A stretch of 64,000 bases of DNA from assembly GCA_012861695.1 (NCBI GenBank), contig JAAOOA010000399.1:8427147-8491146 (forward strand), written 5' to 3'. Made by a program: the position numbers and the translations under genes. Below, piece by piece: positions 13,775 through 32,616 of this stretch. Origin of the DNA: Trematomus loennbergii. Lineage: Eukaryota; Chordata; Actinopteri; Perciformes; Nototheniidae. Every line of letters starts with the position of its first letter. The first letter of the stretch is position 1. The notes under the pieces were generated by a model. That model did not search any database. It saw only the letters and a program-made list of their open reading frames with translations, and was not told the origin of the DNA.

Positions 13775-14024
13775 ATACGTAAGTAGTGTTACCAATCCCG
13801 CTTCAATCTCATTAGTATGCATAAAAAAGTGACAGGTCACACCTTCTAAGTCCCGCCCCCTAATTATGTTTATGACATCCTCCCTTTGATATGCTAATGA
13901 GCCCCTTTGATCGAGGTGTTATCGCGTACAGGTGTGACATCCTCACCGGTAGCCCCCACCCCCCTCAGCCCACCCCCCCCTCCCCATCACATACAGGTGC
14001 TACATCCTCTCAGGTACCCCCCCC
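13775..14024. repeat. R repeat, copy 1 (direct repeat of 15294-15540)
   Basis: About 250 bp from ATACGTAAGTAGTG to a poly-C run, nearly identical and in the same orientation as 15294-15540. Between the two copies lies 1.27 kb that belongs to the left palindrome arm. This copy lies just outside the arm and abuts its outer end inside a C-run. Confidence 0.85.
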
Positions 14025-15293
14025 CAAACAAAAAGTGAAGGAGCGCAAATGAGAAAGCTGCAGCGAGATCAAAAGTCTGATCATTGAGAAAGAAGAAACA
14101 AGAACTGCAAACAAAAACCTATGTTAAAACAAAGAAAAAAGACTTATAGTTTACATGATTACACAAATGATTTGTTTGCAACTTATAGTTTTATTTTTTA
14201 AATTTATTTTATTTTGCTTGACTCAGTTTTGTTTTCTTTTAAACTCATAGTTTTGCTTTATTCTGAGAAAGTGTTGCTTTATCTTTATGATACAAAACTA
14301 ATTCCATAGAGATTGCCTCCCTTCATGTTTACAAGTGTCCTCTCCTGCTCGATACTGTGACTGTTTTCTATGCTATCCTCAGAGTACTGGGACACTATAA
14401 CCATACGTTATACCTCACTAAAGCATGACCAGAGAAACGCTTAAGCCTATCGAAAAAGCACATCCATACCACAGTGATAACAGCGAATCGTGGACTCATC
14501 TGTACGTAACCACTACTGAGCTTTTGTTGACTTTAAATAACAATCCAGATTTGTATAAAAAAAAAACAACTGTGCATTAATATGTTTTATTCCAAGATAA
14601 TGCTGTTTGTTATCATTAATATGAAATGTGCAACCCTGTTTCTTGAACTCCTAAGCATGAAGCTTGCATCAGTGTAATAAAGCAGATTGAATATTCATGA
14701 TAGATGTGTAGGGGTCTATATTCTGACAATCACAATTACTTTATGAGTGTGGGTATTTTACAGGCATTCATGCTATTAAAGATGCACATATTTGCATAAA
14801 TAACCTGTTTGCATACCTCTGTTGTGTTCTGATAATCCAAAAATCAGCTCCTAAATTCTAACCCTATCGTCTATTCCTTGACCTCTGAGTGAAACGTCAC
14901 GGGTTAAGGGATAGTGGATAGGAGAATTCAAAAGGATTTAGGAGAAGAGACTGCGGTACTTTAGAGAATCCGACTGCACTTTCACTATCCGACGTGTTTA
15001 TGATGCGCCAGCGGAGGTCATAAATGTGCGTCTGCTCCTGTGGGAAAACTATGGAAACTACAGTTTTCTATACAGCGGACTACAACATGGATGTATAATA
15101 AGAATGAGGGACTACTGTAAACTCATCTAGAGACTCTACACCGTGCTCTGATGCTGTTGCTTTATGCTTTATGAACGTGGACAACAGAGAAACATATTCT
15201 TCATGACCAAAGTTGGAATTGAAATAAAAAAGGAAAGTGAAACTTATGCTCGTCCCCCTCTCCCTCCGGTCCACATTAATACAAATGATCCCA

Positions 15294-15720
15294 ATACGTA
15301 AGTAGTGTTACCAATCCCGCTTCAATCTCATTAGTATGCATAAAAAAGTGACAGGTCACACCTTCTAAGTCCCGCCCCCTAATTATGTTTATGACATCCT
15401 CCCTTTGATATGCTAATGAGCCCCTTTGATCGAGGTGTTATCGCGTACAGGTGTGACATCCTCACCGGTAGCCCCCACCCCCCTCAGCCCACCCCCCCTC
15501 CCCATCACATACAGGTGCTACATCCTCTCAGGTACCCCCCCCCCCCCCCCCCCCTTCTCAGCCCCACCCCGCTCGGCCCCCACCCTCTCAACCCACCCTC
15601 CTCCCCCCTTACAGCAGGTTTCACATCCGCCCTCTCAGCCCCCACCTCTCTCAGCCCCCACCTACCGCAACCCACCCCCCTCCTCATCCCCCTCCTGTCC
15701 GGTCAGCAGGGCTGTTACAG
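15294..15720. repeat. R repeat copy 2 followed by C-rich tandem units
   Basis: Contains copy 2 of the direct repeat (15294-15540). From about 15447 onward there are degenerate 75-85 bp units, each with CAGGTG.TACATCCTC or a close variant followed by C-rich AGCCCCCACC runs. The proline-rich ORF at 15410-15784 is a consequence of the C-rich repeat. The mirror copy is at about 28730-29150. Confidence 0.75.
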
Positions 15721-16580
15721 TTTAAATCTTACGGACAAAATTAGATATGATTCGCTATTAAACAAACTAATTATAGTAGATTAATTAACTATTCAAACGT
15801 GTACAGTAATTTACAATAACACGGGAATAATAAAACGGGGGCGCTCTCCCTCCTCTCATGACAACACGCCAGTATCATGCAGCTCGCGGGTCCAATAGTG
15901 AGTGACTCGATAGTAAAACTAAAAAACATAGTTATAACTAGTTTAGGTAGTTTGAGAGGTAATTAAAATAGCTACGTGTGTGTTTTGTTCCGCTCACCAG
16001 CTGTAGGGAACATGCAGAGCTACGTGTCGACTCGTCAACAACAGGGGTCTCTCCCTTCAACAGCAGCAAAGGGTCTCCTCCCGTCAGATTAGACTTTACT
16101 AGCGTTTATGTCCATGCGCAATCAGCCCATACAGGATATCTTCTGTCGGTCACACACTATTCTTGTATGTCACATAAGTGGTGCAAATGATACGGTATTG
16201 CGCTAAAGGGTGGTATCATTCTGGGCCGGAGAGATTTCCCTCCACACACACACACGCACACACAAGTCTCTCTGGAGAGGTTAACAATAGTTTAAAGATC
16301 TTACTGACCATGGGGTATTTTTGGTTTTTTCTTTATGTTTAATTACATCACCCATTAATAAAATAATCCTTATATGAAGTTATATGAGATTAGAAATAGC
16401 TGTAGGTTAGGAGGAAAGAGAAGATTTTTTTTTTATGTCGCCCCCACCCCTCCTCAGCCCCCACCCCTCTCAACCCCCTCCTCCTCATCCCCCTCCTGTC
16501 CGGTCAGCGGGGCATTACAGTTTAAATCTTACGGACAAAATTAGATATGACTCGATATTAAACAAACTAATGGACAGTCT
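15660..16580. repeat. Internal direct duplication in the arm
   Basis: A module of about 110 bp (CCCCTCCTGTCCGGTCAGC ... AAATCTTACGGACAAAATTAG) is present at about 15680-15775 and again at 16480-16570. The stretch 16110-16410 also has a diverged second copy at about 17737-17965 (GCGCAATCA.CCCATACAGG and ATATGAAGTTA.ATGAG). Mirrored copies lie in the right arm. Confidence 0.65.
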
Positions 16581-16771
16581 CCTGAGACATATGGTGGGGG
16601 ACTCGTTTGGGGGGTGTACACATAAGTGATGCAACTTTAGATACACTTTTGAAGTAAGCACCACTCTACAACTGGTAGAAAGTTAAGTACTTTGTATGGA
16701 ATTGGGTTTTCTTTAGAGCTGTTTTCAGTGAGACAATGCAGTTTCTGATCATTTCAAGTTTCAAGTTTCAA

Positions 16772-16880
16772 GGATTTATGGCATATGCCCATTAGCTACA
16801 GTGTAGATATGTCAATGAAAAACATAGGTCACAGGCTCCTCCAACAGTGCACATAAAACAGATAAAATACTGCAATTTGT
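16772..16880. repeat. Dispersed repeat sharing GCTACA.TGTAGATATG
   Basis: Related to sequence at about 63464-63551 outside the palindrome, with shared words for the transcript-like tail (CAGGCTCCTC, CACTGTAGATATG). The mirror copy is at about 27568-27678. Probably the tail of a teleost retroelement; the family is not resolved. Confidence 0.5.
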
Positions 16881-17158
16881 GCGTAATTCTCTCACAAAGG
16901 AACTGTAAGATACACGTTTATGTATGGAAAACTATATAACTTGGTAAAATATTCATTCATTTGTAGTGAATTGAGTTTTCTTCAAGAATAAAACTCTAAA
17001 TGGAGAGTTAGTGATTCGATGAAACAATGCAGTTTTGATAACTTGACTTGACTAACATTACTTTTTTTAAATATATGTTTTTAGATGCTTTACTTTTGAT
17101 TTCTTTCATATTATTTTAACACAACATTACTTTTTTCATATTTTTCAACATACTGTGA

Positions 17159-17189
<31 letters not shown>

Positions 17190-17311
17190 TCTCTCCATTA
17201 TATTTTTGAATATACAGTGATTTGTACCAAAATACAACATGCAACTATTACATTATACAATATTATGGCTTTTTGCGATATTTTCAACACAATATACTTT
17301 CTTTTTTGTAG

Positions 17312-17487
17312 GGCTTCAGGATATTGGGCATGTCATGCGTAAAACTGGTGTCATCTTTCCTGAAACTGATGTGCTGTCCGTTTTACAAACAAGTTATCTT
17401 TCTGCTTCTTCACCCTCTGAATTTTCCTCCCCCGTCCCTCTTCCTTCAGCCATCACAACAGCAATCAAGTCAGATCTGAGAAATTAA
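17312..17487 (+). CDS. Unrecognised terminal-exon-like ORF (left copy)
   Basis: A good acceptor (TTCTTTTTTGTAG) precedes an open frame reading LQDIGHVMRKTGVIFPETD and ending at TAA after KSDLRN, about 58 codons. The composition is ordinary and not repeat-like. I do not recognise the family and found no partner exon with certainty. It is on the strand opposite to the spliced gene at 18274-18840. An alternative is a chance ORF behind a chance acceptor. Confidence 0.35.
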
Positions 17488-17976
17488 ACACCTCTTCCCA
17501 AAGCGTGACTTCCCTATTGAGGGAGGGGGGCAGTGGGGCCTAACCCTATTTGGCCAAATATACTAACATGCAGAACATATGGTATGTTTGAAAAAAGACT
17601 AACCATCTATCCAGTTCAAGCTGTCTTTAAGATGTGACTTTTTCCCCGTAAAATCGTGACAAACTATTACTTATTAAATTTGACCTCATGCTGCTTGGTT
17701 GAAAATGATAGATGAGCATTTAGCAACAGATCAACGCGCAATCAACCCATACAGGAGATCTCTTTTCTACACATTATGTGTTATCACTATAATATCATGT
17801 CATTATTTAATGTTGTTTTGTTTGTGTGTGTGTGTGTGTACAACGAAGTCTCTTTGAGAGGGAAAATTATAATTTAAAGATCTTAATACCCCCTTATTGT
17901 TTAATTACTTCACACAACTATTAAAGAATCCCTATATGAAGTTACATGAGGCTACATTTTACGGGTGTGCTTCCTT

Positions 17977-18150
17977 AGATGATGTAAATAGTTTAAGTGT
18001 CATGTTAGGGGGGCATTACGGACCTCAGGAGTCCGCCCTTGGAGGCTTGGAGAGCGGATAAAGAGAGGCGTATTTACTGGTGTTGAGCCCGGGATGATGT
18101 AAATAGTCCAAGTGCCATGGAACTCAGGAGTCCGCCCTTTGAGGCGTTGT
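17977..18150. repeat. Paired direct repeat upstream of the arm gene's visible 3' side
   Basis: Two copies of a module with GATGATGTAAATAGT followed by CTCAGGAGTCCGCCCTT, at about 17977-18050 and 18091-18145. Mirror copies lie at about 26300-26475. Each GGACTCCTGAG-type core has partial dyad symmetry. Role unknown. Confidence 0.55.
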
Positions 18151-18273
18151 TAACATTAATGTTTTTTGCTTCTGTTTTTGTTACTAAGATACTTTTTAGC
18201 CTTATGATAGGATGAACTTAAGCTGTAGTCAATAAAGACATGTTTAATAGAGTGTTGCTGTTAGAGAACATAC

Positions 18274-18840
18274 CTGCGCAGCACTCCACCACGTCTTGGT
18301 TTTGGCTTCATGGCCTTCACTGTCCTCTCCCTTTTGAGTTTTTTCAAAGGCTAGGATACATTTTTCCAAATGATCACTTGTTACCTGGTGACAAACATAT
18401 GGTTATATAACCTTAAAGAACTAACAAAAAATAATTAAGTATTTGCAATGCATAAACATAGAAGATATCACTGTCATATTATGATCACTTATTGTAAGTA
18501 AGTTTAAGTAAAACTAACACAAGTCAATATTATTCACCTGGGCATTAGTGGGCTTGAGGGTCTCAGGGAGCGTGGACAAAGTGACTTGTCTCTGTATTTG
18601 AGGATTCTCAGTGCAGGCACTAACAGGAAGCTGCTGTGCATTAGTGGAGAGTCCTCTGAAGGCAGCTGTTATTTCATTCACACACTCATCTGTTACCTGC
18701 TGACTCCTCATAGTAAGTCTATCAAAGTCAGCTGTTAAGTTGTCCATACCATCGCTGGATAACAGGTAACTTTTGATTGACAGTCCAGCCATGGCAGCTG
18801 CCAACTCGTCCATATAATTCTTAAGAACGTGGTGACAATA
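18274..18840 (-). CDS. Unrecognised spliced gene, two internal exons (left copy)
   Basis: Exon 18538-18840 (303 nt, 101 codons) starts after TTTTTTGTAG and ends CAG|GTGAAT. The next exon, 18274-18384 (111 nt, 37 codons), starts after CACCAG and ends CAG|GTATGT. Both are in phase 0, so they join in frame to 138 codons with no stop. The protein is acidic and helical-looking. It holds two related stretches, QQVTDECVNEITAAF and QVTSDHLEKCILAF, each next to an exon start or middle, suggesting an internal repeat. An ATG (MDELAAAM) lies 9 codons into the first exon, but the frame is open through the acceptor, so a 5' exon probably exists. I do not recognise the family. Confidence 0.5.
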
Positions 18841-19249
18841 CTACAAAAAAGTGTATATATTAGGTCAGTTAACCTTGAAGAGCTAAACAGTTCAAGTGGT
18901 AAGTAACTAAGTATTTGCAATGAATAAACATAGAAATGATCACTGTCATATTATATAATCACTTAATATGGAGATAAGTAAAACTGACACAGACAGTTTA
19001 AACTGCTTGTTAAAACGCTATTGCTTATTGTGTTTTCTCAGCACACTAACATAAATTAAGGATGTATAATATAAAAAACTAGAAAACGATATAGTATTTT
19101 CAAGTCTTACTTTAGTATGGTAAAATTAAGAATAAGTCACATTAAAGTGTGTCATGATTTTCCGTAAAAAAGTCAAGTATAGTTTGTCAAAAGAATATGA
19201 AAAAATCATTTTGTAGAGTAGTATATTGAAAATCTCAGTGTTTAACTGA

Positions 19250-19312
19250 ACACACCTACATGTGATAACGCCTCGAACAAAGGGGTAATTAGCATACAAA
19301 GGGGGGTCACTA
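19250..19312. repeat. Inverted relative of the R repeat
   Basis: ACACCTACATGTGATAACGC ... TTAGCATACAAAGGGG matches, at roughly 80 percent by eye, the reverse complement of 15395-15455. The two sites bracket about 3.8 kb that contains the spliced gene and the terminal-exon ORF, so they could be diverged terminal inverted repeats of an inner element. Mirror copy at about 25140-25200. Confidence 0.55.
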
Positions 19313-19799
19313 GCATCAGTGGGGGAAAGGTGCTATGGGAATGAACTTTGAGGAGGGGGAACTTCCAGCCCCTAAACATCTAGTTGGGCAATGTGAATTG
19401 AACGATAAACCGATCACTGTAAATGAAACGCGGAGAGAAGCAGCAGTGCAAATCGCTAAGTCTATTACCTTGTATGCACTACGACATTAACTTGGTCAAA
19501 TGTAATATGTCTTTCTGAAGATGTGGCGAATGGTGTGTTTTTCAATTAAACAACCATAACAAAATGAAAATGTGTTTTATTTTTGCTTTCATATATAGTA
19601 ATAGTATTAACTCCTCTGACTAGACTGTACTAAAATAAGACGTTTCACTGTTAAATAAAAATGGAAGTAGAAAATCGAGATAATGAGGAGGCTCGTTATG
19701 TATCCAGTAACTATGAACAGCAGTTTGAAAATGTTATTTAACCCTTTAACTCTAATTGACAAATCTAAAATAGCCTCTAGCTTATCTATAAATTTGTGA

Positions 19800-20230
19800 T
19801 TTTAACACTTATTCACTGACACAAGGCAGATTATGGCTTTTTTCTCTTGCCAAGATACTTTTAGACACACTCTGAGGTATGCAAAACCTTAAAACTAGAA
19901 AATGAAGTACATTGTCTGATTAGATTTTTTCGTAAAGACTGTTTCTCTAAAAGGCAAGTTTGTGATTTTTAACACTTATTTACTGACACAAGGCAGATTT
20001 TTGACTTTTTTCTCTTTTCATGTGTTACCAAGATACTTTTTAGATACACTTTTTTGTATGCAACACTTAACAAAGGGGTATAATATGAAGTACTTTGTAA
20101 GGAATGGGGGTTTCTTTAATACCCCGTTGTAGAAAGTTAAGTACTTTTTCTGAACAGATTTTCTTTAAGACTGTGACTCTTAAAGACACTCTGGGATTTT
20201 AGTAAGACAATCCAGTTTTATGGAAGTAAC
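19800..20230. repeat. Degenerate ~200-bp tandem modules
   Basis: Repeating words in the same order: CAAGATACTTTT, TATGCAAAAC.TTAA, AAGTACTTTGTA, GTTTTCTTTAA and GACAATCCAGTTTTA. More diverged modules occur at about 16640-16760 and 16900-17040. The 124-codon ORF starts at the end of the last module. Mirrored at 24220-24650. Confidence 0.5.
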
Positions 20231-20594
20231 TAAAATTATTTTTGTTTTTTTCTCCTACAAAGATACTTATAGTTACACTTTAGTGGATGCAAAACTTAAA
20301 GTAAAATTAAAAATGGGTAACTACTATGGAAAACAATCTGTATATATCTATCAGAATGCAGTCAATACCTGTTTAATAAGTGTGTTGTTGATGACGATTG
20401 AAAACAGAATGAGTAGTGATCCCCGTGTAAACAGAATGGTTGAAGTTTGTAAACTAGAAGACATTTTGGATATCGTTCATTCTGGCAGTACTATTCCGGG
20501 TCATTGGGAAACGATTGTAAACGAAACATTTAAAGTGGTACTGGAATCTTCATTTTCCGAAACATTCTGTAACATTAGTCAAGTCATAGTATAG
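20220..20594 (+). CDS. 124-codon ORF of unknown function (left copy)
   Basis: An uninterrupted ORF with ordinary composition; it starts MEVTKIIFVFF and ends SQVIV. The N-terminus is hydrophobic (residues 5-12) and the body is mixed and mostly soluble. A possible splice acceptor (CTCCTACAAAG) lies inside it near codon 14, so the first residues may be intronic and the true exon may start there. No family recognised. The right-arm copy gives the same translation. Confidence 0.4.
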   Translation: MEVTKIIFVFFSYKDTYSYTLVDAKLKVKLKMGNYYGKQSVYIYQNAVNTCLISVLLMTIENRMSSDPRVNRMVEVCKLEDILDIVHSGSTIPGHWETIVNETFKVVLESSFSETFCNISQVIV

Positions 20595-20780
20595 TTTGAC
20601 AAAAAGATCTTGAAAAAGTCATGACATTGTGTGTTGAAATGGTTTTGAATAAACACATCAGTATTTAAAAAAGTAAAATTGTATCAAGTGCATCAGACAA
20701 CTCAAATTACTCCATTTGAACCATATTATAAATAAGTATAGAATGGTCATAGTATATAGCAGGGGTGTTTAATAGATTTC

Positions 20781-22028
20781 TGTGTTCTGTGTTTTGTGTG
20801 TCAGTGTTGCAGTGTTTCAGTGTTTCAGTGTTTCAGTGTTCTGTGTTTCAGTGTTGCAGTGTTTCAGTGTTTGTGTGTCAGTGTGTCAGTGTTGCAGTGT
20901 TGTAGTGTTTCAGTGTTTTGTATGTCAGTGTTTCAGTGTTTCAGTGTTTATGTATTTCAGTGTTTTCAGTGTTTTGTGTTTCAGTGTTTCAGTGTGTTTG
21001 TGTTTCAGTGTTTTCAGTGTTTTTGTGTTTCAGTGTTTCAGTGTGTTTGTGTTTCAGTGTTTCTGTGTTGCAGTGTTGCAGTGTTTCAGTGTTTTCAGTG
21101 TTTCTGTGTTTCTGTGTTGCAGTGTTGCAGTGTTTCAGTGTTTTCAGTGTTTTGTGTTTCAGTGTTTCAGTGTTTTTGTGTTTCAGTGTTTCAGTGTTTC
21201 TGTGTTTTGTGTTGCAGTGTTTCAGTGTTTTCAGTGTTTTGTGTTTCAGTGTTTCAGTGTTTTGTGTGTCAGTGTTTCAGTGTTGCAGTGTTTCAGTGTT
21301 TTCAGTGTTTTGTGTTTCAGTGTTTCAGTGTGTCAGTGTTGCAGTGTTTCAGTGTTTCAGTGTTGCAGTGTTTCAGTGTTTCAGTGTTTGTGTTCAGTGT
21401 TTCAGTGTGTCAGTGTTCAGTGTTTCAGTGTTTTGTGTTTCAGTGTTTCAGTGTTCAGTGTTACAGTGTTTCAGTGTTTCAGTGTTTCAGTGTTCTGTGT
21501 TTCAGTGTTTTGGGTGTCAGTGTGTCAGTGTTGCAGTGTTTCAGTGTTTCAGTGTTTCAGTGTTTGTGTTAGTGTTTCAGTGTTTTCAGTGTTTTGTGTT
21601 TCAGTGTTTCAGTGTTTTTGGTGTTTCAGTGTTTCAGTGTTTTTGTGTTTCTTTCTGTGTTTCTGTGTTTTTGTGTGTCAGTGTTTTCAGTGTGTCAGTG
21701 TTTCAGTGTTGCAGTGTTTCAGTGTTTCAGTTTTGTGTTTCAGTGTTCAGTGTGTCAGTGTTGCAGTGTTTCAGTGTCAGTGTTGCAGTGTTTCAGTGTT
21801 CAGTGTTTCAGTGTTTCAGTGTTTTGTTTCAGTGTGTCAGTGTTGCAGTGTTTCAGTGTTTCAGTGTTCTGTGTTTCAGTGTGGGTGTCAGTGTGTCAGT
21901 GTTGCAGTGTTTCAGTGTTTCAGTGTTTAGTGTTTCAGTGTTTTCAGTGTTTTGTGTTTCAGTGTTTCAGTGTTTTTGTGTTTCAGTGTTTCAGTGTTTC
22001 AGTGTTTGTGTGTCAGAGTGTCAGTGTT
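20781..22028. repeat. CAGTGTTTC/CAGTGTTGC minisatellite (left arm)
   Basis: About 1.25 kb of 9-10 bp units (CAGTGTTTC, CAGTGTTGC, CAGTGTTTTGTGTTT and similar). The unit contains no stop in the forward frames, so three overlapping ORFs of 258-396 codons rich in C, S, V, F and Q arise; I treat these as artefacts. Confidence 0.95.
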
Positions 22029-22104
22029 TACAGCCTTTCTTTGCTCTGATCAATCCCACAGGGATCTCCCCCTGGAAGGAATATAGCAGGATGAGAGAAA
22101 AACA

Positions 22105-22216
22105 TTAAAAAAACGTATCTTAGAAGTGGCTATAACATTTGATGCAATTCTAAAAGATAGTCAGATTCCTAAAAAGTTACAAACGGATGATGGAAAAGAA
22201 TTATTTGTTTTTGAAG
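22105..22216 (+). pseudogene. Integrase-core fragment (Polinton/Maverick-like) cut at the palindrome axis
   Basis: The forward frame reads VAITFDAILKDSQIPKKLQT followed by DDGKE. This resembles the region around the second catalytic aspartate of the retroviral-type (rve) integrases found in Polinton/Maverick and related elements, where K-L-Q-T-D-x-G-x-E-F is typical. Only about 35 codons exist before the axis; beyond it the frame reads the mirror strand. The mirror copy is 22217-22328 on the minus strand. The call rests on motif memory, not a search. Confidence 0.45.
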
Positions 22217-22405
22217 CTTCAAAAACAAATAATTCTTTTCCATCATCCGTTTGTAACTTTTTAGGAATCTGACTATCTTTTAGAATTGCATCAAATGTTA
22301 TAGCCACTTCTAAGATACGTTTTTTTAATGTTTTTCTCTCATCCTGCTATATTCCTTCCAGGGGGAGATCCCTGTGGGATTGATCAGAGCAAAGAAAGGC
22401 TGTAA

Positions 22406-23672
22406 ACACTGACACTCTGACACACAAAACACTGAAACACTGAAACACTGAAACACAAAAACACTGAAACACTGAAACACAAAACACTGAAAACACTGAA
22501 ACACATAAACACTGAAACACTGAAACACTGAAACACTGCAACACTGACACACTGACACCCAAAACACTGAAACACAGAACACTGAAACACTGAAACACTG
22601 CAACACTGACACACTGAAACACAAACACTGAAACACTGAAACACAAACACTGAAACACTGAAACACTGCACACTGAAACACTGCAACACTGACACACTGA
22701 AACACTGAAACACAAAACACTGAAAACACTGAAACACTGCAACACTGAAACACTGACACACTGAAAACACTGACACACAAAAACACAGAAACACAGAAAC
22801 ACAGAAACACAAAAACACTGAAACACTGAAACACCAAAAACACTGAAACACTGAAACACAAAACACTGAAACACTGAAACACTGAAACACTGAAACACTG
22901 AAACACTGAAACACTGAAACACTGAAACACTGAAACACTGACACACTGACACCAAAACACTGAAACACAGAACACTGAAACACTGAAACACTGAAACACT
23001 GAACACTGACACACTGAAACACTGAAACACAAAACACTGAAAACACTGAAAACACTGACACACTGAAACACTGAAACACAAAACACTGAAACACTGAAAC
23101 ACTGCAACACTGAAACACTGAACACTGACACTGAAACACTGAAACACAAAACACTGAAAACACTGAAACACTGCAACACTGAAAACACTGAACACTGAAC
23201 ACAAAACACTGAAACACTGAAACACAAAACACTGAAACACTGCAACACAAAACACAGAAACACTGAAACACTGAAACACAAAAAACACTGAAACACTGAA
23301 ACACAAAACACTGAAAACACTGAAACACTGCAACACTGCAAACACTGAAACACAGAAACACTGAAAACACTGAAACACTGCAACACTGCAACACAGAAAC
23401 ACTGAAACACAAACACACTGAAACACTGAAACACAAAAACACTGAAAACACTGAAACACAAACACACTGAAACACTGAAACACAAAACACTGAAAACACT
23501 GAAATACATAAACACTGAAAACTGAAACACTGACATACAAAACACTGAAACACTACAACACTGCAACACTGACACACTACACACTGAAACACTGCAACAC
23601 TGAAACACAGAACACTGAAACACTGAAACACTGAAACACTGCAACACTGACACACAAAACACAGAACACAGA
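22406..23672. repeat. CAGTGTTTC/CAGTGTTGC minisatellite (right arm)
   Basis: Reverse-complement partner of 20781-22028, about 20 bp different in total length and with a different order of variant units. The arrays have therefore diverged or been resolved differently. Confidence 0.95.
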
Positions 23673-23856
23673 AATCTATTAAACACCCCTGCTATATACT
23701 ATGACCATTCTATACTTATTTATAATATGGTTCAAATGGAGTAATTTGAGTTGTCTGATGCACTTGATACAATTTTACTTTTTTAAATACTGATGTGTTT
23801 ATTCAAAACCATTTCAACACACAATGTCATGACTTTTTCAAGATCTTTTTGTCAAA

Positions 23857-24231
23857 CTATACTATGACTTGACTAATGTTACAGAATGTTTCGGAAAATG
23901 AAGATTCCAGTACCACTTTAAATGTTTCGTTTACAATCGTTTCCCAATGACCCGGAATAGTACTGCCAGAATGAACGATATCCAAAATGTCTTCTAGTTT
24001 ACAAACTTCAACCATTCTGTTTACACGGGGATCACTACTCATTCTGTTTTCAATCGTCATCAACAACACACTTATTAAACAGGTATTGACTGCATTCTGA
24101 TAGATATATACAGATTGTTTTCCATAGTAGTTACCCATTTTTAATTTTACTTTAAGTTTTGCATCCACTAAAGTGTAACTATAAGTATCTTTGTAGGAGA
24201 AAAAAACAAAAATAATTTTAGTTACTTCCAT
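23857..24231 (-). CDS. 124-codon ORF of unknown function (right copy)
   Basis: Reverse-complement copy of 20220-20594 with identical translated product. It points toward the palindrome axis, as in the left arm. No family recognised. Confidence 0.4.
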   Translation of the reverse strand: MEVTKIIFVFFSYKDTYSYTLVDAKLKVKLKMGNYYGKQSVYIYQNAVNTCLISVLLMTIENRMSSDPRVNRMVEVCKLEDILDIVHSGSTIPGHWETIVNETFKVVLESSFSETFCNISQVIV

Positions 24232-25609
24232 AAAACTGGATTGTCTTACTAAAATCCCAGAGTGTCTTTAAGAGTCACAGTCTTAAAGAAAATCTGTTCA
24301 GAAAAAGTACTTAACTTTCTACAACGGGGTATTAAAGAAACCCCCATTCCTTACAAAGTACTTCATATTATACCCCTTTGTTAAGTGTTGCATACAAAAA
24401 AGTGTATCTAAAAAGTATCTTGGTAACACATGAAAAGAGAAAAAAGTCAAAAATCTGCCTTGTGTCAGTAAATAAGTGTTAAAAATCACAAACTTGCCTT
24501 TTAGAGAAACAGTCTTTACGAAAAAATCTAATCAGACAATGTACTTCATTTTCTAGTTTTAAGGTTTTGCATACCTCAGAGTGTGTCTAAAAGTATCTTG
24601 GCAAGAGAAAAAAGCCATAATCTGCCTTGTGTCAGTGAATAAGTGTTAAAATCACAAATTTATAGATAAGCTAGAGGCTATTTTAGATTTGTCAATTAGA
24701 GTTAAAGGGTTAAATAACATTTTCAAACTGCTGTTCATAGTTACTGGATACATAACGAGCCTCCTCATTATCTCGATTTTCTACTTCCATTTTTATTTAA
24801 CAGTGAAACGTCTTATTTTAGTACAGTCTAGTCAGAGGAGTTAATACTATTACTATATATGAAAGCAAAAATAAAACACATTTTCATTTTGTTATGGTTG
24901 TTTAATTGAAAAACACACCATTCGCCACATCTTCAGAAAGACATATTACATTTGACCAAGTTAATGTCGTAGTGCATACAAGGTAATAGACTTAGCGATT
25001 TGCACTGCTGCTTCTCTCCGCGTTTCATTTACAGTGATCGGTTTATCGTTCAATTCACATTGCCCAACTAGATGTTTAGGGGCTGGAAGTTCCCCCTCCT
25101 CAAAGTTCATTCCCATAGCACCTTTCCCCCACTGATGCTAGTGACCCCCCTTTGTATGCTAATTACCCCTTTGTTCGAGGCGTTATCACATGTAGGTGTT
25201 TCAGTTAAACACTGAGATTTTCAATATACTACTCTACAAAATGATTTTTTCATATTCTTTTGACAAACTATACTTGACTTTTTTACGGAAAATCATGACA
25301 CACTTTAATGTGACTTATTCTTAATTTTACCATACTAAAGTAAGACTTGAAAATACTATATCGTTTTCTAGTTTTTTATATTATACATCCTTAATTTATG
25401 TTAGTGTGCTGAGAAAACACAATAAGCAATAGCGTTTTAACAAGCAGTTTAAACTGTCTGTGTCAGTTTTACTTATCTCCATATTAAGTGATTATATAAT
25501 ATGACAGTGATCATTTCTATGTTTATTCATTGCAAATACTTAGTTACTTACCACTTGAACTGTTTAGCTCTTCAAGGTTAACTGACCTAATATATACACT
25601 TTTTTGTAG

Positions 25610-26176
25610 TATTGTCACCACGTTCTTAAGAATTATATGGACGAGTTGGCAGCTGCCATGGCTGGACTGTCAATCAAAAGTTACCTGTTATCCAGCGATG
25701 GTATGGACAACTTAACAGCTGACTTTGATAGACTTACTATGAGGAGTCAGCAGGTAACAGATGAGTGTGTGAATGAAATAACAGCTGCCTTCAGAGGACT
25801 CTCCACTAATGCACAGCAGCTTCCTGTTAGTGCCTGCACTGAGAATCCTCAAATACAGAGACAAGTCACTTTGTCCACGCTCCCTGAGACCCTCAAGCCC
25901 ACTAATGCCCAGGTGAATAATATTGACTTGTGTTAGTTTTACTTAAACTTACTTACAATAAGTGATCATAATATGACAGTGATATCTTCTATGTTTATGC
26001 ATTGCAAATACTTAATTATTTTTTGTTAGTTCTTTAAGGTTATATAACCATATGTTTGTCACCAGGTAACAAGTGATCATTTGGAAAAATGTATCCTAGC
26101 CTTTGAAAAAACTCAAAAGGGAGAGGACAGTGAAGGCCATGAAGCCAAAACCAAGACGTGGTGGAGTGCTGCGCAG
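25610..26176 (+). CDS. Unrecognised spliced gene, two internal exons (right copy)
   Basis: Mirror copy with exons 25610-25912 and 26066-26176 and identical splice signals and translation. Preserved frame and splice sites in both arms suggest a recent duplication or ongoing homogenisation. The gene points away from the palindrome axis in both arms. Confidence 0.5.
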
Positions 26177-26962
26177 GTATGTTCTCTAACAGCAACACTC
26201 TATTAAACATGTCTTTATTGACTACAGCTTAAGTTCATCCTATCATAAGGCTAAAAAGTATCTTAGTAACAAAAACAGAAGCAAAAAACATTAATGTTAA
26301 CAACGCCTCAAAGGGCGGACTCCTGAGTTCCATGGCACTTGGACTATTTACATCATCCCGGGCTCAACACCAGTAAATACGCCTCTCTTTATCCGCTCTC
26401 CAAGCCTCCAAGGGCGGACTCCTGAGGTCCGTAATGCCCCCCTAACATGACACTTAAACTATTTACATCATCTAAGGAAGCACACCCGTAAAATGTAGCC
26501 TCATGTAACTTCATATAGGGATTCTTTAATAGTTGTGTGAAGTAATTAAACAATAAGGGGGTATTAAGATCTTTAAATTATAATTTTCCCTCTCAAAGAG
26601 ACTTCGTTGTACACACACACACACACAAACAAAACAACATTAAATAATGACATGATATTATAGTGATAACACATAATGTGTAGAAAAGAGATCTCCTGTA
26701 TGGGTTGATTGCGCGTTGATCTGTTGCTAAATGCTCATCTATCATTTTCAACCAAGCAGCATGAGGTCAAATTTAATAAGTAATAGTTTGTCACGATTTT
26801 ACGGGGAAAAAGTCACATCTTAAAGACAGCTTGAACTGGATAGATGGTTAGTCTTTTTTCAAACATACCATATGTTCTGCATGTTAGTATATTTGGCCAA
26901 ATAGGGTTAGGCCCCACTGCCCCCCTCCCTCAATAGGGAAGTCACGCTTTGGGAAGAGGTGT

Positions 26963-27138
26963 TTAATTTCTCAGATCTGACTTGATTGCTGTTGTGATGG
27001 CTGAAGGAAGAGGGACGGGGGAGGAAAATTCAGAGGGTGAAGAAGCAGAAAGATAACTTGTTTGTAAAACGGACAGCACATCAGTTTCAGGAAAGATGAC
27101 ACCAGTTTTACGCATGACATGCCCAATATCCTGAAGCC
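26963..27138 (-). CDS. Unrecognised terminal-exon-like ORF (right copy)
   Basis: Mirror of 17312-17487 with the same translation. The adjacent TA-rich run differs slightly between arms. Function unknown. Confidence 0.35.
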
Positions 27139-27289
27139 CTACAAAAAAGAAAGTATATTGTGTTGAAAATATCGCAAAAAGCCATAATATTGTATAATGT
27201 AATAGTTGCATGTTGTATTTTGGTACAAATCACTGTATATTCAAAAATATAATGGAGAGAAAAAAAAAAATATATATAATATATATATA

Positions 27290-28000
27290 TATCACAGTAT
27301 GTTGAAAAATATGAAAAAAGTAATGTTGTGTTAAAATAATATGAAAGAAATCAAAAGTAAAGCATCTAAAAACATATATTTAAAAAAAGTAATGTTAGTC
27401 AAGTCAAGTTATCAAAACTGCATTGTTTCATCGAATCACTAACTCTCCATTTAGAGTTTATTCTTGAAGAAAACTCAATTCACTACAAATGAATGAATAT
27501 TTTACCAAGTTATATAGTTTTCCATACATAAACGTGTATCTTACAGTTCCTTTGTGAGAGAATTACGCACAAATTGCAGTATTTTATCTGTTTTATGTGC
27601 ACTGTTGGAGGAGCCTGTGACCTATGTTTTTCATTGACATATCTACACTGTAGCTAATGGGCATATGCCATAAATCCTTGAAACTTGAAACTTGAAATGA
27701 TCAGAAACTGCATTGTCTCACTGAAAACAGCTCTAAAGAAAACCCAATTCCATACAAAGTACTTAACTTTCTACCAGTTGTAGAGTGGTGCTTACTTCAA
27801 AAGTGTATCTAAAGTTGCATCACTTATGTGTACACCCCCCAAACGAGTCCCCCACCATATGTCTCAGGAGACTGTCCATTAGTTTGTTTAATATCGAGTC
27901 ATATCTAATTTTGTCCGTAAGATTTAAACTGTAATGCCCCGCTGACCGGACAGGAGGGGGATGAGGAGGAGGGGGTTGAGAGGGGGTGGGGGCTGAGGAG
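27290..28000. other. Right-arm non-coding stretch
   Basis: Mirror of about 16450-17160. It holds the degenerate modules, the retroelement-tail-like repeat and the 110-bp duplicated module. No credible gene. Confidence 0.6.
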
Positions 28001-30130
28001 GGGTGGGGGCGACATAAAAAAAAATCTTCTCTTTCCTCCTAACCTACAGCTATTTCTAATCTCATATAACTTCATATAAGGATTATTTTATTAATGGGTG
28101 ATGTAATTAAACATAAAGAAAAAACCAAAATACCCCATGGTCAGTAAGATCTTTAAACTATTGTTACCTCTCCAGAGAGACTTGTGTGTGCGTGTGTGTG
28201 TGTGGAGGGAAATCTCTCCGGCCCAGAATGATACCACCCTTTAGCGCAATACCGTATCATTTGCACCACTTATGTGACATACAAGAATAGTGTGTGACCG
28301 ACAGAAGATATCCTGTATGGGCTGATTGCGCATGGACATAAACGCTAGTAAAGTCTAATCTGACGGGAGGAGACCCTTTGCTGCTGTTGAAGGGAGAGAC
28401 CCCTGTTGTTGACGAGTCGACACGTATGCTCTGCATGTTCCCTACAGCTGGTGAGCGGAACAAAACACACACGTAGCTATTTTAATTACCTCTCAAACTA
28501 CCTAAACTAGTTATAACTATGTTTTTTAGTTTTACTATCGAGTCACTCACTATTGGACCCGCGAGCTGCATGATACTGGCGTGTTGTCATGAGAGGAGGG
28601 AGAGCGCCCCCGTTTTATTATTCCCGTGTTATTGTAAATTACTGTACACGTTTGAATAGTTAATTAATCTACTATAATTAGTTTGTTTAATAGCGAATCA
28701 TATCTAATTTTGTCCGTAAGATTTAAACTGTAACAGCCCTGCTGACCGGACAGGAGGGGGATGAGGAGGGGGGTGGGTTGCGGTAGGTGGGGGCTGAGAG
28801 AGGTGGGGGCTGAGAGGGCGGATGTGAAACCTGCTGTAAGGGGGGAGGAGGGGTGGGTTGAGAGGGTGGGGGCCGAGCGGGGTGGGGGCTGAGAAGGGGG
28901 GGGCTACCTGAGAGGATGTAGCACCTGTATGTGATGGGGAGGGGGGGGTGGGCTGAGGGGGGTGGGGGCTACCGGTGAGGATGTCACACCTGTACGCGAT
29001 AACACCTCGATCAAAGGGGCTCATTAGCATATCAAAGGGAGGATGTCATAAACATAATTAGGGGGCGGGACTTAGAAGGTGTGACCTGTCACTTTTTTAT
29101 GCATACTAATGAGATTGAAGCGGGATTGGTACACTACTTACGTATTGGATCATTTGTATTAATGTGGACCGGAGGGAGAGGGGGACGAGCATAAGTTTCA
29201 CTTTCCTTTTTTATTTCAATTCCAACTTTGGTCATGAAGAATATGTTTCTCTGTTGTCCACGTTCATAAAGCATAAAGCAACAGCATCAGAGCACGGTGT
29301 AGAGTCTCTAGATGAGTTTACAGTAGTCCCTCATTCTTATTATACATCCATGTTGTAGTCCGCTGTATAGAAAACTGTAGTTTCCATAGTTTTCCCACAG
29401 GAGCAGACGCACATTTATGACCTCCGCTGGCGCATCATAACACGTCGGATAGTGAAAGTGCAGTCGGATTCTCTAAAGTACCGCAGTCTCTTCTCCTAAA
29501 TCCTTTTGAATTCTCCTATCCACTATCCCTTAACCCCGTGACGTTTCACTCAGAGGTCAAGGAATAGACGATAGGGTTAGAATTTAGGAGCTGATTTTTG
29601 GATTATCCGAACACAACAGAGGTATGCAAACAGGTTATTTATGCAAATATGTGCATCTTTAATAGCATGAATGCCTGTAAAATACCCACACTCATAAAGT
29701 AATTGTGATTGTCAGAATATAGACCCCTACATCTATCATGAATATTCAATCTGCTTTATTACACTGATGCAAGCCACATGCTTAGGAGTTCAAGAAACAG
29801 GGTTGCACATTTCATATTAATGATAACAAACAGCATTATCTTGGAATAAAACATATTAATGCACAGTTGTTTTTTTATTTATACAAATCTGGATTGTATT
29901 TAAAGTCAACAAAAGCTCAGTAGTGGTTACGTACAGATGAGTCCACGATTCGCTGTTATCACTGTGGTATGGATGTGCTTTTTCGATAGGCTTAAGCGTT
30001 TCTCTGGTCATGCTTTAGTGAGGTATAACGTATATGGTTATAGTGTCCCAGTACTCTGAGGATAGCATAGAAAACAGTCACAGTATCGAGCAGGAGAGGA
30101 CACTTGTAAACATGAAGGGAGGCAATCTCT

Positions 30131-30529
30131 ATGGAATTAGTTTTGTATCATAAAGATAAAGCAACACTTTCTCAGAATAAAGCAAAACTATGAGTTTAAA
30201 AGAAAACAAAACTGAGTCAAGCAAAATAAAATAAATTTCAAAAATAAAACTATAAGTTGCAAACAAATCATTTGTGTAATCATGTAAACTATAAGTCTTT
30301 TTTCTTTGTTTTAACATAGGTTTTTGTTTGCAGTTCTTGTTTCTTCTTTCTCAATGATCAGACTTTTGATCTCGCTGCAGCTTTCTCATTTGCGCTCCTT
30401 CACTTTTTGTTTGAGATTCTGACACAAACCTCCCAGGTGGGCGGGACTTTCAGGGGTGCGTCCCCATTGGCTACTCAGTTTTTGAGTGACAGCCCAGTCC
30501 TCCAGCGATTGTACAGTGCAGGTGTTACC
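30131..30529 (+). repeat. Second fold-back, left limb
   Basis: The outer 280 bp of the right palindrome arm plus about 115 bp of extra sequence (to GGTGTTACC at 30529) recurs inverted at 30944-31827. The spacer, 30530-30943, is about 414 bp with no clear gene. Confidence 0.88.
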
Positions 30530-30943
30530 GATCACAATTAAACTGGGCAGATCACAGCTCCACAGCTGAAGACTTCTCCACGCTGCTTTCAAACTGTGAG
30601 TAAACTACGTGTGCTTCACTTGTAGGCTGTCTGAAGGTGTACACAGGTCTCAGATGGACTTGGACTTTGAACACACATCCCAGTCACCTCATTGTCATTT
30701 TGTAGTCCTCGCTGTACGCGTCCGGATTTCAGCATCGCAACCACAACCTCTCACACTGGTACTGAATGTGCATCAAAGTGTTCCTATCCAGCCAAATATA
30801 CCAAAAGATAAATGTAAACGACAGAAGAAGCGATCGAAATGTGTATTTCCTGGTTATTCGACAATGGCTCCTCAAAGTACACGCCCCTGATACATTCCTA
30901 CCGTTATAGAATATCACGAGTTCCCCGCGCCACCAGTTAAACG

Positions 30944-31827
30944 GTAACACCTGCACTGTACAATCGCTGGAGGACTGGGCTGTCACTCAAAAACTGAGTA
31001 GCCAATAGGGACGCACCCCTGAAAGTCCCGCCCACCTGGGAGGTTTGTGTCAGAATCTCAAACAAAAAGTGAAGGAGAGAGCAAAAGTCTGATCATTGAG
31101 AAAGAAGAAACAAGAACTGCAAACAAAATCCTATGTTAAAACAAAGAAAAAACTTTAGTTTACATCAGGGGTGTCAAACTCAAGGCCCGGGGGCCAAATC
31201 CGGCCCGCGACTTCATTTTATGTGGCCCCACAAGAGCTTGCAAAGAATATAATATGTTTATTATACGGTTACATGCTACTTTACAGAAGCACGTTGCCCA
31301 TAAACGACATGTCCCACAATGCATCTCAAATTTGACTTTTTCTCAGAATTTGACTTTTTTTTTCCAAATATGCCTTTTTTCTTAGAATTAGCCTTTTTCT
31401 CATAAATAGATTTTTTTTTCAAAATGCACTTCTCTTTTTCAAAATGTCACAATCAATGTTTTTTCAGAATGTGGCTTTTCTTTTAAAATCATATTGTGAC
31501 ATTCTCACTGAAGAGACTTGCAATTATTTGCTCTAGACTTCTGCTTTCAGACGTAGTTAATTATGAAGTTATATTAATTAATGATATAGTCTTAAAGTTA
31601 CAAAACCGGCCCTTTGAGTGCAACCATAATGCTGATGTGGCCCGTGATGAAATTGAGTTTGACACCCTGGTTTACATGATTACACAAATGATTTTTTGCA
31701 ACTTATAGTTTTATTTTTGAAATTTATTTTATTTTGCTTGACTCAGTTTTGTTTTCTTTTAAACTCATAGTTTTGCTTTATTCTGAGAAAGTGTTGCTTT
31801 ATCTTTATGATACAAAACTAATCCCAT
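30944..31827 (-). repeat. Second fold-back, right limb (interrupted)
   Basis: Inverted copy of 30131-30529, split by the hAT-type element at 31166-31669. Outer similarity fades near 31827 (AACTAATCCCATA). The outer-arm segment therefore exists three times in the window: about 14025-14310, 30131-30413 and here. Confidence 0.88.
31166..31669. mobile_element. hAT-type non-autonomous element with 8-bp target duplication
   Basis: Begins CAGGGGTGTCAAACTC and ends GAGTTTGACACCCTG. Both sides are flanked by GTTTACAT (31158-31165 and 31670-31677), a perfect 8-bp duplication typical of hAT insertions. About 504 bp with no transposase. The 'CAGGGGTGTCAAACTCAAGG' end is widespread in vertebrate hAT-Charlie-like families. 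Confidence 0.9.
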
Positions 31828-32616
31828 AAATCTCCCTCTTTAGATGGACAAAATGACAGTGTGGCGTAGTCTGTGCAGATGCAATGATAAAGAGGAAACC
31901 ATGGGAATAGAAACAACATGCTGCAATGGTTGCATACTTTTGTTATAGACATCCCTGTATGCACTTTAAAGTCATTGCTGCTACCTGCTGTCTGACAGGA
32001 TCAATGTCACATTTGGGTTGGAATGTATTTGTTTCTAGCAAATATAAGACATACATACGTATCACTAAATTACTTTCTGAATTAGAAATACCCATTATCA
32101 AAACTTAGTTCCACTTAAATAAGAAAAAAGTAATAGCATAGATCTTAAATAAAATGTCAGTAATAAGTCAGGGCAGTGTGATTGTTGTAAAACTTTCAGA
32201 GAGAAAATGTTTCTTTAATTAATTTCACATAGAGCATCTTAGCAAAGACATCATGCACTGAGTCGACACTGTTTTGCCAACTTGAAGAATGATACGAACA
32301 CAGAGCACTTTTCCCTTTCACAACAGGGCAAACCACTTACAAAATACATCCCTCGTAACAATTACCAAGCACAAAGACACCTTCACTTTGAAACAACGAC
32401 AAATACGACATTTAGCAAACAACACCTCTGACAGATAAAGAGTAAAAGACTCTATCCAATCATTTTTTTTACAATACCCAACAATACTTATATACACAAT
32501 AGGTGACACCCTTAATGCCTTTTTTCTTAGTTTTTTGACAAACCTACCTCCTCTCTGATCCTCCCCTGATTGCCCTATTTGAAATGCAGAAGTGCCCGCT
32601 ATAAGAAAAGGCACGG
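31828..32616. other. Downstream flank and likely 3' UTR of synpr
   Basis: AT-rich. It probably includes the minus-strand 3' UTR of the gene ending at 32617. No clear AATAAA was found close to the stop, so the polyadenylation site is not placed. Confidence 0.4.

What the first reader, a model, noticed from the sequence alone, without database searches (positions are those of the whole stretch)
14025..30413. 16.4-kb zero-spacer palindrome carrying duplicated genes
Two arms of about 8.2 kb meet at 22216/22217 with no spacer. Seen directly: the same ORFs, splice sites, minisatellite and repeats occur in mirror order, and the last ~180 bp before the axis are perfectly complementary. The outer halves differ at scattered positions (14830/29608, near 14997, the poly-C run at 15540, near 16020), so this is not one read simply mirrored. 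Possible explanations are a recent inverted duplication with gene conversion strongest at the axis, a head-to-head insertion of a linear element, or two haplotypes joined wrongly. Perfect spacer-less palindromes this size are unstable and rare in assemblies.
Basis: partly seen in the sequence, partly recalled or inferred. Interest (0 to 1): 0.88.

Follow-up and report, generated by a model that had tools for sequence, protein, structure and literature searches.

The report
Giant palindromic Maverick-derived mobile element
The big mirror-image stretch is one copy of a 13.8-kb mobile DNA element, found many times in this fish genome, that looks like one end of a virus-like transposon (Maverick) folded back on itself; a further 1.3 kb of mirrored DNA on each side is most likely an assembly error.

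Summary
The 16.4-kb palindrome is in the sequence as described, but it is two things. The core, 15301-29138 (13.84 kb), is one copy of a dispersed mobile element. Its axis sequence scored at 40 loci of this genome, the window's included, all 40 as inverted pairs (40 of 317 candidates scored). Its ends, AGTAGT...ACTACT, are Maverick/Polinton end motifs. Exact 6-bp target duplications flank 13 of the 19 other palindromes whose flanks I read. Polymerase-bearing elements in the same genome have the same ends. The axis cuts a Maverick integrase gene fragment (33 aa, 67% identical). Of 16 centres compared, 11 carry a 30-32-nt asymmetric loop; the window's "zero spacer" looks like a blend of its two orientations. 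Arms are much more alike within copies than between copies. The outer 1.27 kb on each side mirrors host flank and is most likely a misassembly. Best reading: a non-autonomous element made from the integrase end of a Maverick by snap-back replication, kept symmetric through a self-complementary intermediate. Structure shown, mechanism inferred. A new variant of a known kind.

The parts
15301..29138 (.). Palindromic mobile element, 13.84 kb, termini AGTAGTGTTACC...(mirror)
   Evidence: In all 10 fetched copies similarity stops within 8 bp of these ends; terminus pattern 128 forward + 125 reverse, reversed-pattern control 0/0
15301..22216 (+). Left arm
22217..29138 (-). Right arm (inverted copy of the left arm)
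15301..16436 (+). Outer ~1.1 kb of the arm, 90-92% identical to the end of a polymerase-bearing Maverick at C687 (L041:7954-9325)
22087..22216 (+). ORF running into the axis; 22108-22206 codes for 33 aa that are 67% identical to the Maverick integrase ORF of C687 (L042:9370-9870, -)
   Evidence: the ORF alone has no Pfam match
22207..22226 (.). Axis: 20-nt symmetric sequence where 11 of 16 centres compared have a 30-32-nt asymmetric loop
20777..22029 (+). 8-bp minisatellite TTTCAGTG, left arm
22404..23674 (-). 8-bp minisatellite, right arm
13776..13781 (.). TACGTA, proposed true left target-site duplication
13782..14025 (+). Extra copy of the first 244 bp of the element, ending in poly-C at the misjoin
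14025..15300 (.). Mirror copy of the right host flank, probably spurious, ending in TACGTA
29139..30413 (.). Host flank right of the element, starting with target duplication TACGTA (29139-29144)
18514..18840 (-). ORF of 108 aa (mirror about 25610-25936); relatives in two notothenioid fishes and on two metagenome contigs
19336..19490 (+). Short ORF MGMNFEEGELPA... (mirror about 24961-25115); longer forms occur in other copies
20313..20594 (+). ORF of 93 aa (mirror about 23857-24138); relatives P0001-P0004, of which P0001, P0002 and P0004 have a further C-terminal stretch not found in the window

Best explanation
The core is a non-autonomous derivative of the Maverick/Polinton elements of this genome. 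It is a giant palindrome: the integrase end of a Maverick (terminal repeat, accessory-type region with short ORFs, and the beginning of an integrase gene) present twice, head-to-head, around a loop of about 32 nt. Shown: the palindrome is a repeated unit with Maverick-type ends and 6-bp target duplications; polymerase-bearing Mavericks with the same ends are in the same genome; the axis lies in an integrase gene fragment, whose reading continues into the loop and breaks where the mirror begins; two shorter elements with the same ends are not palindromic at their midpoints; arms are more alike within copies than between copies. Inferred: during Maverick-type protein-primed replication a single strand folded back inside the integrase gene and primed on itself (snap-back), giving a molecule with the same replicable and integrable end twice. 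It spreads with polymerase and integrase supplied in trans, and stays symmetric because its single strand is self-complementary and mismatches between arms are repaired. Separately, the mirrored 1.27-kb flanks and the poly-C join at 14025 in the window are assembly errors; the true locus is A-TACGTA-element-TACGTA-B.
For: 40 of 40 scored axis loci, the window's included (317 first-look candidates), are inverted pairs. Flanks read for 19 palindromes besides the window: 13 exact 6-bp duplications, 2 of 5 bp, 4 none (by eye, by script). 7 of 7 tested polymerase-bearing elements with the same termini have exact 6-bp duplications. Of 39 terminus pairs formed from the first 100 of 253 listed places, 8 hold a PolB match (15.0-16.3 kb), 12 hold a scored axis (13.0-14.6 kb), 19 hold neither. 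The C687 element has PolB, A32-like ATPase and rve integrase, and a sub-threshold adenovirus-protease match, and 90-92% identity to the outer arm. Integrase fragment at the axis: 22 of 33 aa identical, E 2e-11 in a single comparison; in copy C1041 the reading goes on into the loop as KELFNKIFEALLKK against KEFFNKVFQALLKK (by eye). Vertebrate Mavericks have the end motif (AGT)2//(ACT)2, 6-bp duplications, and an integrase module facing the centre with accessory regions outside the core modules (PMC8097293 passages), which matches the order in the arm. Arm pairing: mean 0.173% within copies against 1.10% for random pairing, 0 of 20,000 shuffles as low (11 copies); 0.173% against 0.442%, again 0 of 20,000, without C23. 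C23: 9 substitutions between its arms, 175-202 to all other arms compared. Loop present in both orientations. Misassembly: TACGTA pairing, C506 flank mirrored 60/60 bp.
Against: No reads are available, so arm identity could be inflated by polishing with multi-mapped reads. C14 arms differ by 16 substitutions, more than from some other copies; C713 arms differ by 43 and it has no target duplication; C529 has a deletion in one arm only; C87 arms differ in structure. Within-copy distance is below every between-copy distance in only 3 of 11 copies (C66, C147, C23). Apart from the outer ~1.1 kb, the integrase fragment and matches of 34-77 bp, the arm was not found in the fetched part of the C687 Maverick, so the exact parent is unknown; the C687 right end was not read. 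The integrase match is short. No snap-back intermediate was seen. The mirrored flank has 4 substitutions in 1,271 bp, so a real inverted duplication of the flank is not excluded.
Confidence: 0.8

Rival explanations
1. The palindrome formed once, by chromosomal inverted duplication or a head-to-head double insertion, and has since moved as an ordinary transposon; arm similarity is due to gene conversion in the chromosome.
For: The loops read are the same sequence or close variants, so one founding event is likely. Some copies have unequal arms.
Against: C23 has a different outer arm sequence on both sides and only 9 substitutions between arms, so symmetry was re-made after divergence. The same Maverick end on both sides with a short loop inside the integrase gene fits copying of one end better than a chromosomal accident.
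Confidence: 0.16
2. The palindromes are sequencing or assembly foldbacks of a single-armed element.
For: The window and C506 have mirrored flanks, C456 and C290 share a right flank nearly the same as that of C87, and C713 lacks a target duplication. In the unique part of the window arms 12 of 14 gaps are 1 bp, 9 of them in homopolymers.
Against: 13 of 19 palindromes have different host DNA on the two sides with an exact 6-bp duplication, which a foldback would not give. The asymmetric loop is the same or nearly the same sequence across copies, in both orientations.
Confidence: 0.04
3. The whole 16.4 kb, flanks included, is a real inverted duplication at this locus, for example a break at the palindrome repaired by hairpin copying that took 1.27 kb of flank along.
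For: The mirrored flank has 4 substitutions in 1,271 bp, so it is not letter-for-letter one sequence. Palindromes can trigger such rearrangements (general knowledge).
Against: A pairs with B through TACGTA if the extra 1.5 kb is left out. The join lies in a poly-C run where the element start is duplicated. C506 has the same oddity.
Confidence: 0.12

Closest known systems
Vertebrate Maverick/Polinton elements
   Same: End motif (AGT)2//(ACT)2, 6-bp target duplications, outer ~1.1 kb 90-92% identical to a polymerase-bearing element in the same genome, integrase gene fragment facing the centre inside an accessory-type region (PMC8097293 passages)
   Different: No complete Maverick core gene found in the ORFs tested, only an integrase fragment and an 18-aa protease-like piece; inverted repeats of 6.9 kb make up the whole element, against 46-1,447 bp for intact vertebrate Mavericks in that paper
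Snapback genomes of adeno-associated virus (defective interfering particles)
   Same: One end of a linear genome in self-complementary form, head-to-head as dimer, depending on trans-acting functions (PMC8235507 passages)
   Different: Parvoviral replication rather than protein-primed; not an inherited, integrated, multi-copy family
Foldback-like elements such as Galileo
   Same: Very long inverted repeats in a dispersed DNA transposon (PMC4168063 passages)
   Different: P-superfamily transposase and 7- or 8-bp duplications; here 6 bp and Maverick ends
Polinton-like viruses of cryptophytes
   Same: Expanded inserted families with TIRs of hundreds to thousands of bp and 5-6 bp duplications (PMC12220804 passages)
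   Different: Described elements encode capsid and other genes; 'palindrom' does not occur in the main text of that paper

Membership tests
Maverick/Polinton | 6-bp target-site duplication | tested here: met
   13 of 19 palindromes exact, 2 with 5 bp, 4 none
Maverick/Polinton | End motif (AGT)2//(ACT)2 | tested here: met
   AGTAGT...ACTACT; motif from PMC8097293
Maverick/Polinton | Ends shared with a polymerase-bearing element in the same genome | tested here: met
Maverick/Polinton | Encodes complete PolB, integrase, ATPase, protease, capsid | tested here: not met
   No Pfam match in 10 window ORFs at E<=1 or in 2 ORFs of copy C23 at E<=10. tblastn of 7 ORFs of the C687 Maverick against the arm found only 33 aa of integrase at the axis and 18 aa of the protease-like ORF. 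Filed as a Maverick-derived non-autonomous element, not as a Maverick
Maverick/Polinton | TIR length within 46-1,447 bp | tested here: not met
   6.9 kb (range)
Snapback (self-complementary) defective genome | Same end twice, head-to-head, around a short loop | tested here: met
Snapback (self-complementary) defective genome | Loop is a continuation of the parent gene into which the strand folded back | tested here: met
   Integrase reading continues into the loop in copy C1041 (by eye); short stretch
Snapback (self-complementary) defective genome | Made during viral-type replication and carried by a helper | not testable with these tools
   Candidate helpers present; process not observed
Foldback/Galileo (P superfamily) | 7- or 8-bp target duplication | tested here: not met
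   6 bp
Assembly foldback artefact | Same host flank on both sides, mirrored | tested here: inconclusive
   Met for the window's outer 1.27 kb and for C506; not met for the 13 copies with a 6-bp duplication between different flanks

The most novel reading that the evidence does not exclude
These are inherited snap-back satellites of Maverick viruses. A self-complementary molecule, made from the integrase end of a Maverick, lives on the replication and integration machinery of Mavericks still present in the genome, multiplies as a hairpin, and competes with its helper the way defective interfering genomes do. Inward-facing mirrored genes could also give double-stranded RNA, so the fish may carry an inherited brake on Mavericks.
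Probability: 0.25. Interest if true: 0.88.

Novelty: new variant of a known kind. Interest (0 to 1): 0.76.

Why it matters
Maverick particles had not been observed according to PMC8097293 (abstract, in the listing), and protein-primed replication outside the chromosome has, as far as I recall, not been shown for vertebrate Mavericks. A multi-copy family of near-perfect 13-14 kb palindromes with Maverick ends, an axis inside the integrase gene and within-copy symmetry is what a self-complementary replication intermediate would leave behind, and it can be tested in a living fish. It also shows that very large palindromes can sit at many loci of a genome, and warns that such elements can make assemblers write mirrored host flanks.

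Tried and rejected
Considered and rejected: missed-adapter foldback as the source of the core (different flanks with 6-bp duplications); a unique segmental inverted duplication; a host gene duplicated in mirror image (no Pfam match at the E-values used for the window ORFs scanned, or above cut-off for the ORFs of other copies and relatives; no solved-structure match for one ORF). On my first pass I treated the 85-bp match between the axis and the C687 Maverick as minor; a direct comparison showed it to be integrase. For that reason I raised the confidence of the best explanation from 0.75 to 0.80, lowered the chromosomal rival from 0.20 to 0.16, and set interest at 0.76 instead of 0.74. A fold prediction for the relative P0001 had mean pLDDT 43 and was not used. 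A viral-contig scan with one ORF found no relative. I could not count axis centres genome-wide, or search for the missing C-terminal part of the 20313 ORF: those requests did not complete. Not in print: my searches covered an open-access library only; I saw their listings, and no listed title or abstract opening describes a palindromic Maverick family. The 2006 Polinton paper is not held. Papers seen as passages only: PMC8097293, PMC12220804, PMC8235507, PMC4168063, PMC12368964, PMC6431247, PMC4046053, PMC2836005.
Full report
Observation. The palindrome is real in the sequence: 14025-30413 matches itself inverted at 98.6%, with the axis at 22216/22217 and 212 perfect bases on each side. Outside the 8-bp minisatellite the element arms differ by 6 substitutions and 14 gaps in 5,433 aligned bases; 12 of the gaps are 1 bp, 9 of those in homopolymers. 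The region also holds a third, direct copy of the arm stretch 15294-15543 at 13775-14025, ending in poly-C just where the left arm begins.

It is a dispersed element. The window lies in a 1.208-Gb assembly at C399:8427147-8491146. A 187-bp query next to the axis gave 80 matches, which form 40 inverted pairs at 40 loci, the window's included; these are the 40 candidates scored out of 317 in the first look, so the number is a lower bound. I fetched both halves of 10 further copies. In all 10, similarity to the window stops at 15293-15301 on the left and 29138-29145 on the right. The element is therefore 15301-29138, and the outer 1.27 kb on each side of the reported palindrome is not part of it.

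Ends and target duplications. Copies begin AGTAGT and end in its mirror. Among the 10 copies (read by eye), 7 have an exact 6-bp duplication (C14, C6, C66, C147, C529, C28b, C23), 2 have 5 bp (C27, C87) and C713 has none. Of 9 more copies tested by script, 6 have exact 6-bp duplications; C456 and C290 share a right flank that is nearly that of C87, and C506 has a right flank that is the reverse complement of its left flank, over 60 of 60 bases. In total 13 of 19 non-window copies have exact 6-bp duplications, 2 have 5 bp and 4 have none.

Relation to Mavericks. A search for PF03175 (DNA polymerase B) gave 122 matches in this genome (91 of 116 candidates scored) and none in 14 control genomes. 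The 20-base terminus occurs 128 times forward and 125 times reverse with up to one mismatch; the reversed control pattern occurs 0 and 0 times. From the first 100 of these 253 places, 39 plus/minus pairs under 45 kb can be formed: 12 hold a scored palindrome axis (13.0-14.6 kb), 8 hold a polymerase match (15.0-16.3 kb) and 19 hold neither (axis and polymerase positions typed as points). Of the 8 polymerase-bearing pairs I tested 7, and all 7 have exact 6-bp duplications. One such element at C687, read in two separate pieces, carries a 1,179-aa PolB, an A32-like ATPase, an rve integrase and a sub-threshold match to adenovirus protease. Its left end is 90.3% identical to the first 1,012 bases of the arm, with a further stretch at 91.8%. 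The AGTAGT//ACTACT end motif and 6-bp duplications are those given for vertebrate Mavericks in PMC8097293 (passages), where TIRs run from 46 to 1,447 bp; here each arm is 6.9 kb.

The axis lies in an integrase gene. An ORF runs into the axis at 22087-22216. Pfam does not recognise it, but 33 of its 43 residues align without gaps to the integrase ORF of the C687 Maverick with 22 identities (67%; E 2e-11 for this single comparison). In tblastn of 7 ORFs of that Maverick against the arm, only this and an 18-aa match of the protease-like ORF (arm 1261-1314) passed E 0.01. In copy C1041, whose loop is asymmetric, the reading goes on into the loop as KELFNKIFEALLKK against KEFFNKVFQALLKK of the Maverick, and the resemblance ends where the mirror arm begins (by eye). 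So the loop is the continuation of the integrase gene, and the arm reads, from outside in: Maverick end, short ORFs, minisatellite, integrase. PMC8097293 describes an integrase module facing the centre, with accessory regions outside the core modules (passages), which is the same order. The rest of the arm matched the fetched part of C687 only in stretches of 34-77 bp; its right end was not read, so the exact parent is not known.

Centre. In 16 centres compared, the window's included, 8 show the same 32-nt asymmetric loop in one or other orientation; C23, C1041 and C456 have 30-31 nt; C420, C417 and C2345 are shortened further; the window and C87 are symmetric. The window's GTTTTTGAAG/CTTCAAAAAC combines TTTTTGAAGC, found in one orientation of the loop, with its mirror GCTTCAAAAA, found in the other, as a consensus over reads of both orientations would; this is inference. 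Of the 19 terminus pairs with neither axis nor polymerase, I read pieces of 351-401 bp at the midpoints of 13. C113, C49, C173 and C1 show a palindromic centre with a variant of the loop, C415 a partial one, and C399:29.88M shows the loop at the edge of the piece. The other 7 contain arm sequence without a palindrome in the piece. Among them C2 (7.54 kb) and C86 (7.45 kb) have one forward run of arm sequence with an extra segment at the midpoint, and are identical to each other over 549 bp. At C2, one 301-bp piece near the right end matches Maverick-type terminal sequence in inverse orientation (89-90% to C23 outer arms, 73-74% to the window arm and C687), and in a second 301-bp piece 72 bp match the C687 subterminal region at 95.8%, also inverse; C2 has a 6-bp duplication. 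These are relatives not palindromic at their midpoints, and possible progenitors; they were not read whole.

Arms evolve together. Counting substitutions only, outside the minisatellite and away from gaps, arms of one copy differ by 0.173% on average against 1.10% for random pairing of the same 22 arms; no shuffle of 20,000 was as low, and the same holds without C23 (0.173% against 0.442%), without C23 and C713, and without C23, C713 and C87. C23 is the clearest case: its arms differ from each other by 9 and from all others compared by 175 to 202. Its outer ~0.9 kb is only 81% like the main family (left arm compared), while its inner part shows 0-1.4% substitutions per 250-bp bin from 17551 on (right arm compared). 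A palindrome formed once and then copied as ordinary DNA would not do this. Against: C14 (16 differences within), C713 (43, no target duplication), C529 (deletion in one arm) and C87 (unequal arms). Only C66, C147 and C23, 3 of 11, are closer within than to every other arm. Without reads, polishing effects cannot be excluded.

Genes. The short ORFs scanned have no Pfam match above cut-off. The ORF at 20313 has four relatives on short contigs; P0001, P0002 and P0004 have a C-terminal stretch not found in the window. P0009 combines peptide parts found apart in the arm, as a transcript would (by eye).

The window locus. The best reading is that the true insertion joins A, ending TACGTA at 13781, to the element and then to TACGTA at 29139 and B. 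The assembly instead runs 244 bp into the element, meets a poly-C run, jumps to a mirror copy of the right flank (14025-15300), and then writes the whole element. C506 supports this as a recurrent assembly error at these palindromes. The mirror copy has 4 substitutions in 1,271 bp, so a real rearrangement keeps about one chance in eight.

Mechanism. Inferred, not shown: a strand of a Maverick or Maverick-type element folds back inside the integrase gene and primes on itself, giving a self-complementary molecule with two identical ends; polymerase and integrase from resident Mavericks copy and insert it; repair of mismatches in the folded strand keeps the arms alike. AAV snapback genomes are the closest known parallel (PMC8235507 passages).

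Noticed in passing
31166-31669: About 504-bp hAT-like insertion with 8-bp duplication GTTTACAT and ends CAGGGGTGTCAAACTC (the hAT label is recalled), inside a diverged inverted copy (30942-31828) of 30130-30530.
   Followed up: partly
C506:65486-81617 (L060, L061): Second palindromic copy with a host flank mirrored over 60 of 60 bases.
   Followed up: partly
C456, C290 and C87 right flanks (L047, L049, L024): C456 and C290 show the same right flank and C87 nearly the same, suggesting misjoins at palindromic copies.
   Followed up: no
C27:2834528-2845654, C399:984982-995726, C327:86099-96026: Same-ended elements of 10-11 kb with arm sequence but no palindromic centre in the piece read; the first two have 6-bp duplications.
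   Followed up: no
C2:46567708-46575246 and C86:13890033-13897478 (L095, L096): 7.5-kb elements not palindromic at the midpoint, identical to each other over 549 bp there, with a longer form of the 19336 ORF.
   Followed up: partly
L027, L028 (C23): Copy whose outer arm sequence differs from the main family on both sides while the inner arms are nearly identical, as if the terminal part had been exchanged and then copied to the other arm.
   Followed up: partly
16561-16614 (arm 1261-1314) against L042:5912-6451 (-): 18-aa match (83%) to the protease-like ORF of the C687 Maverick near the inner edge of the terminal repeat.
   Followed up: no
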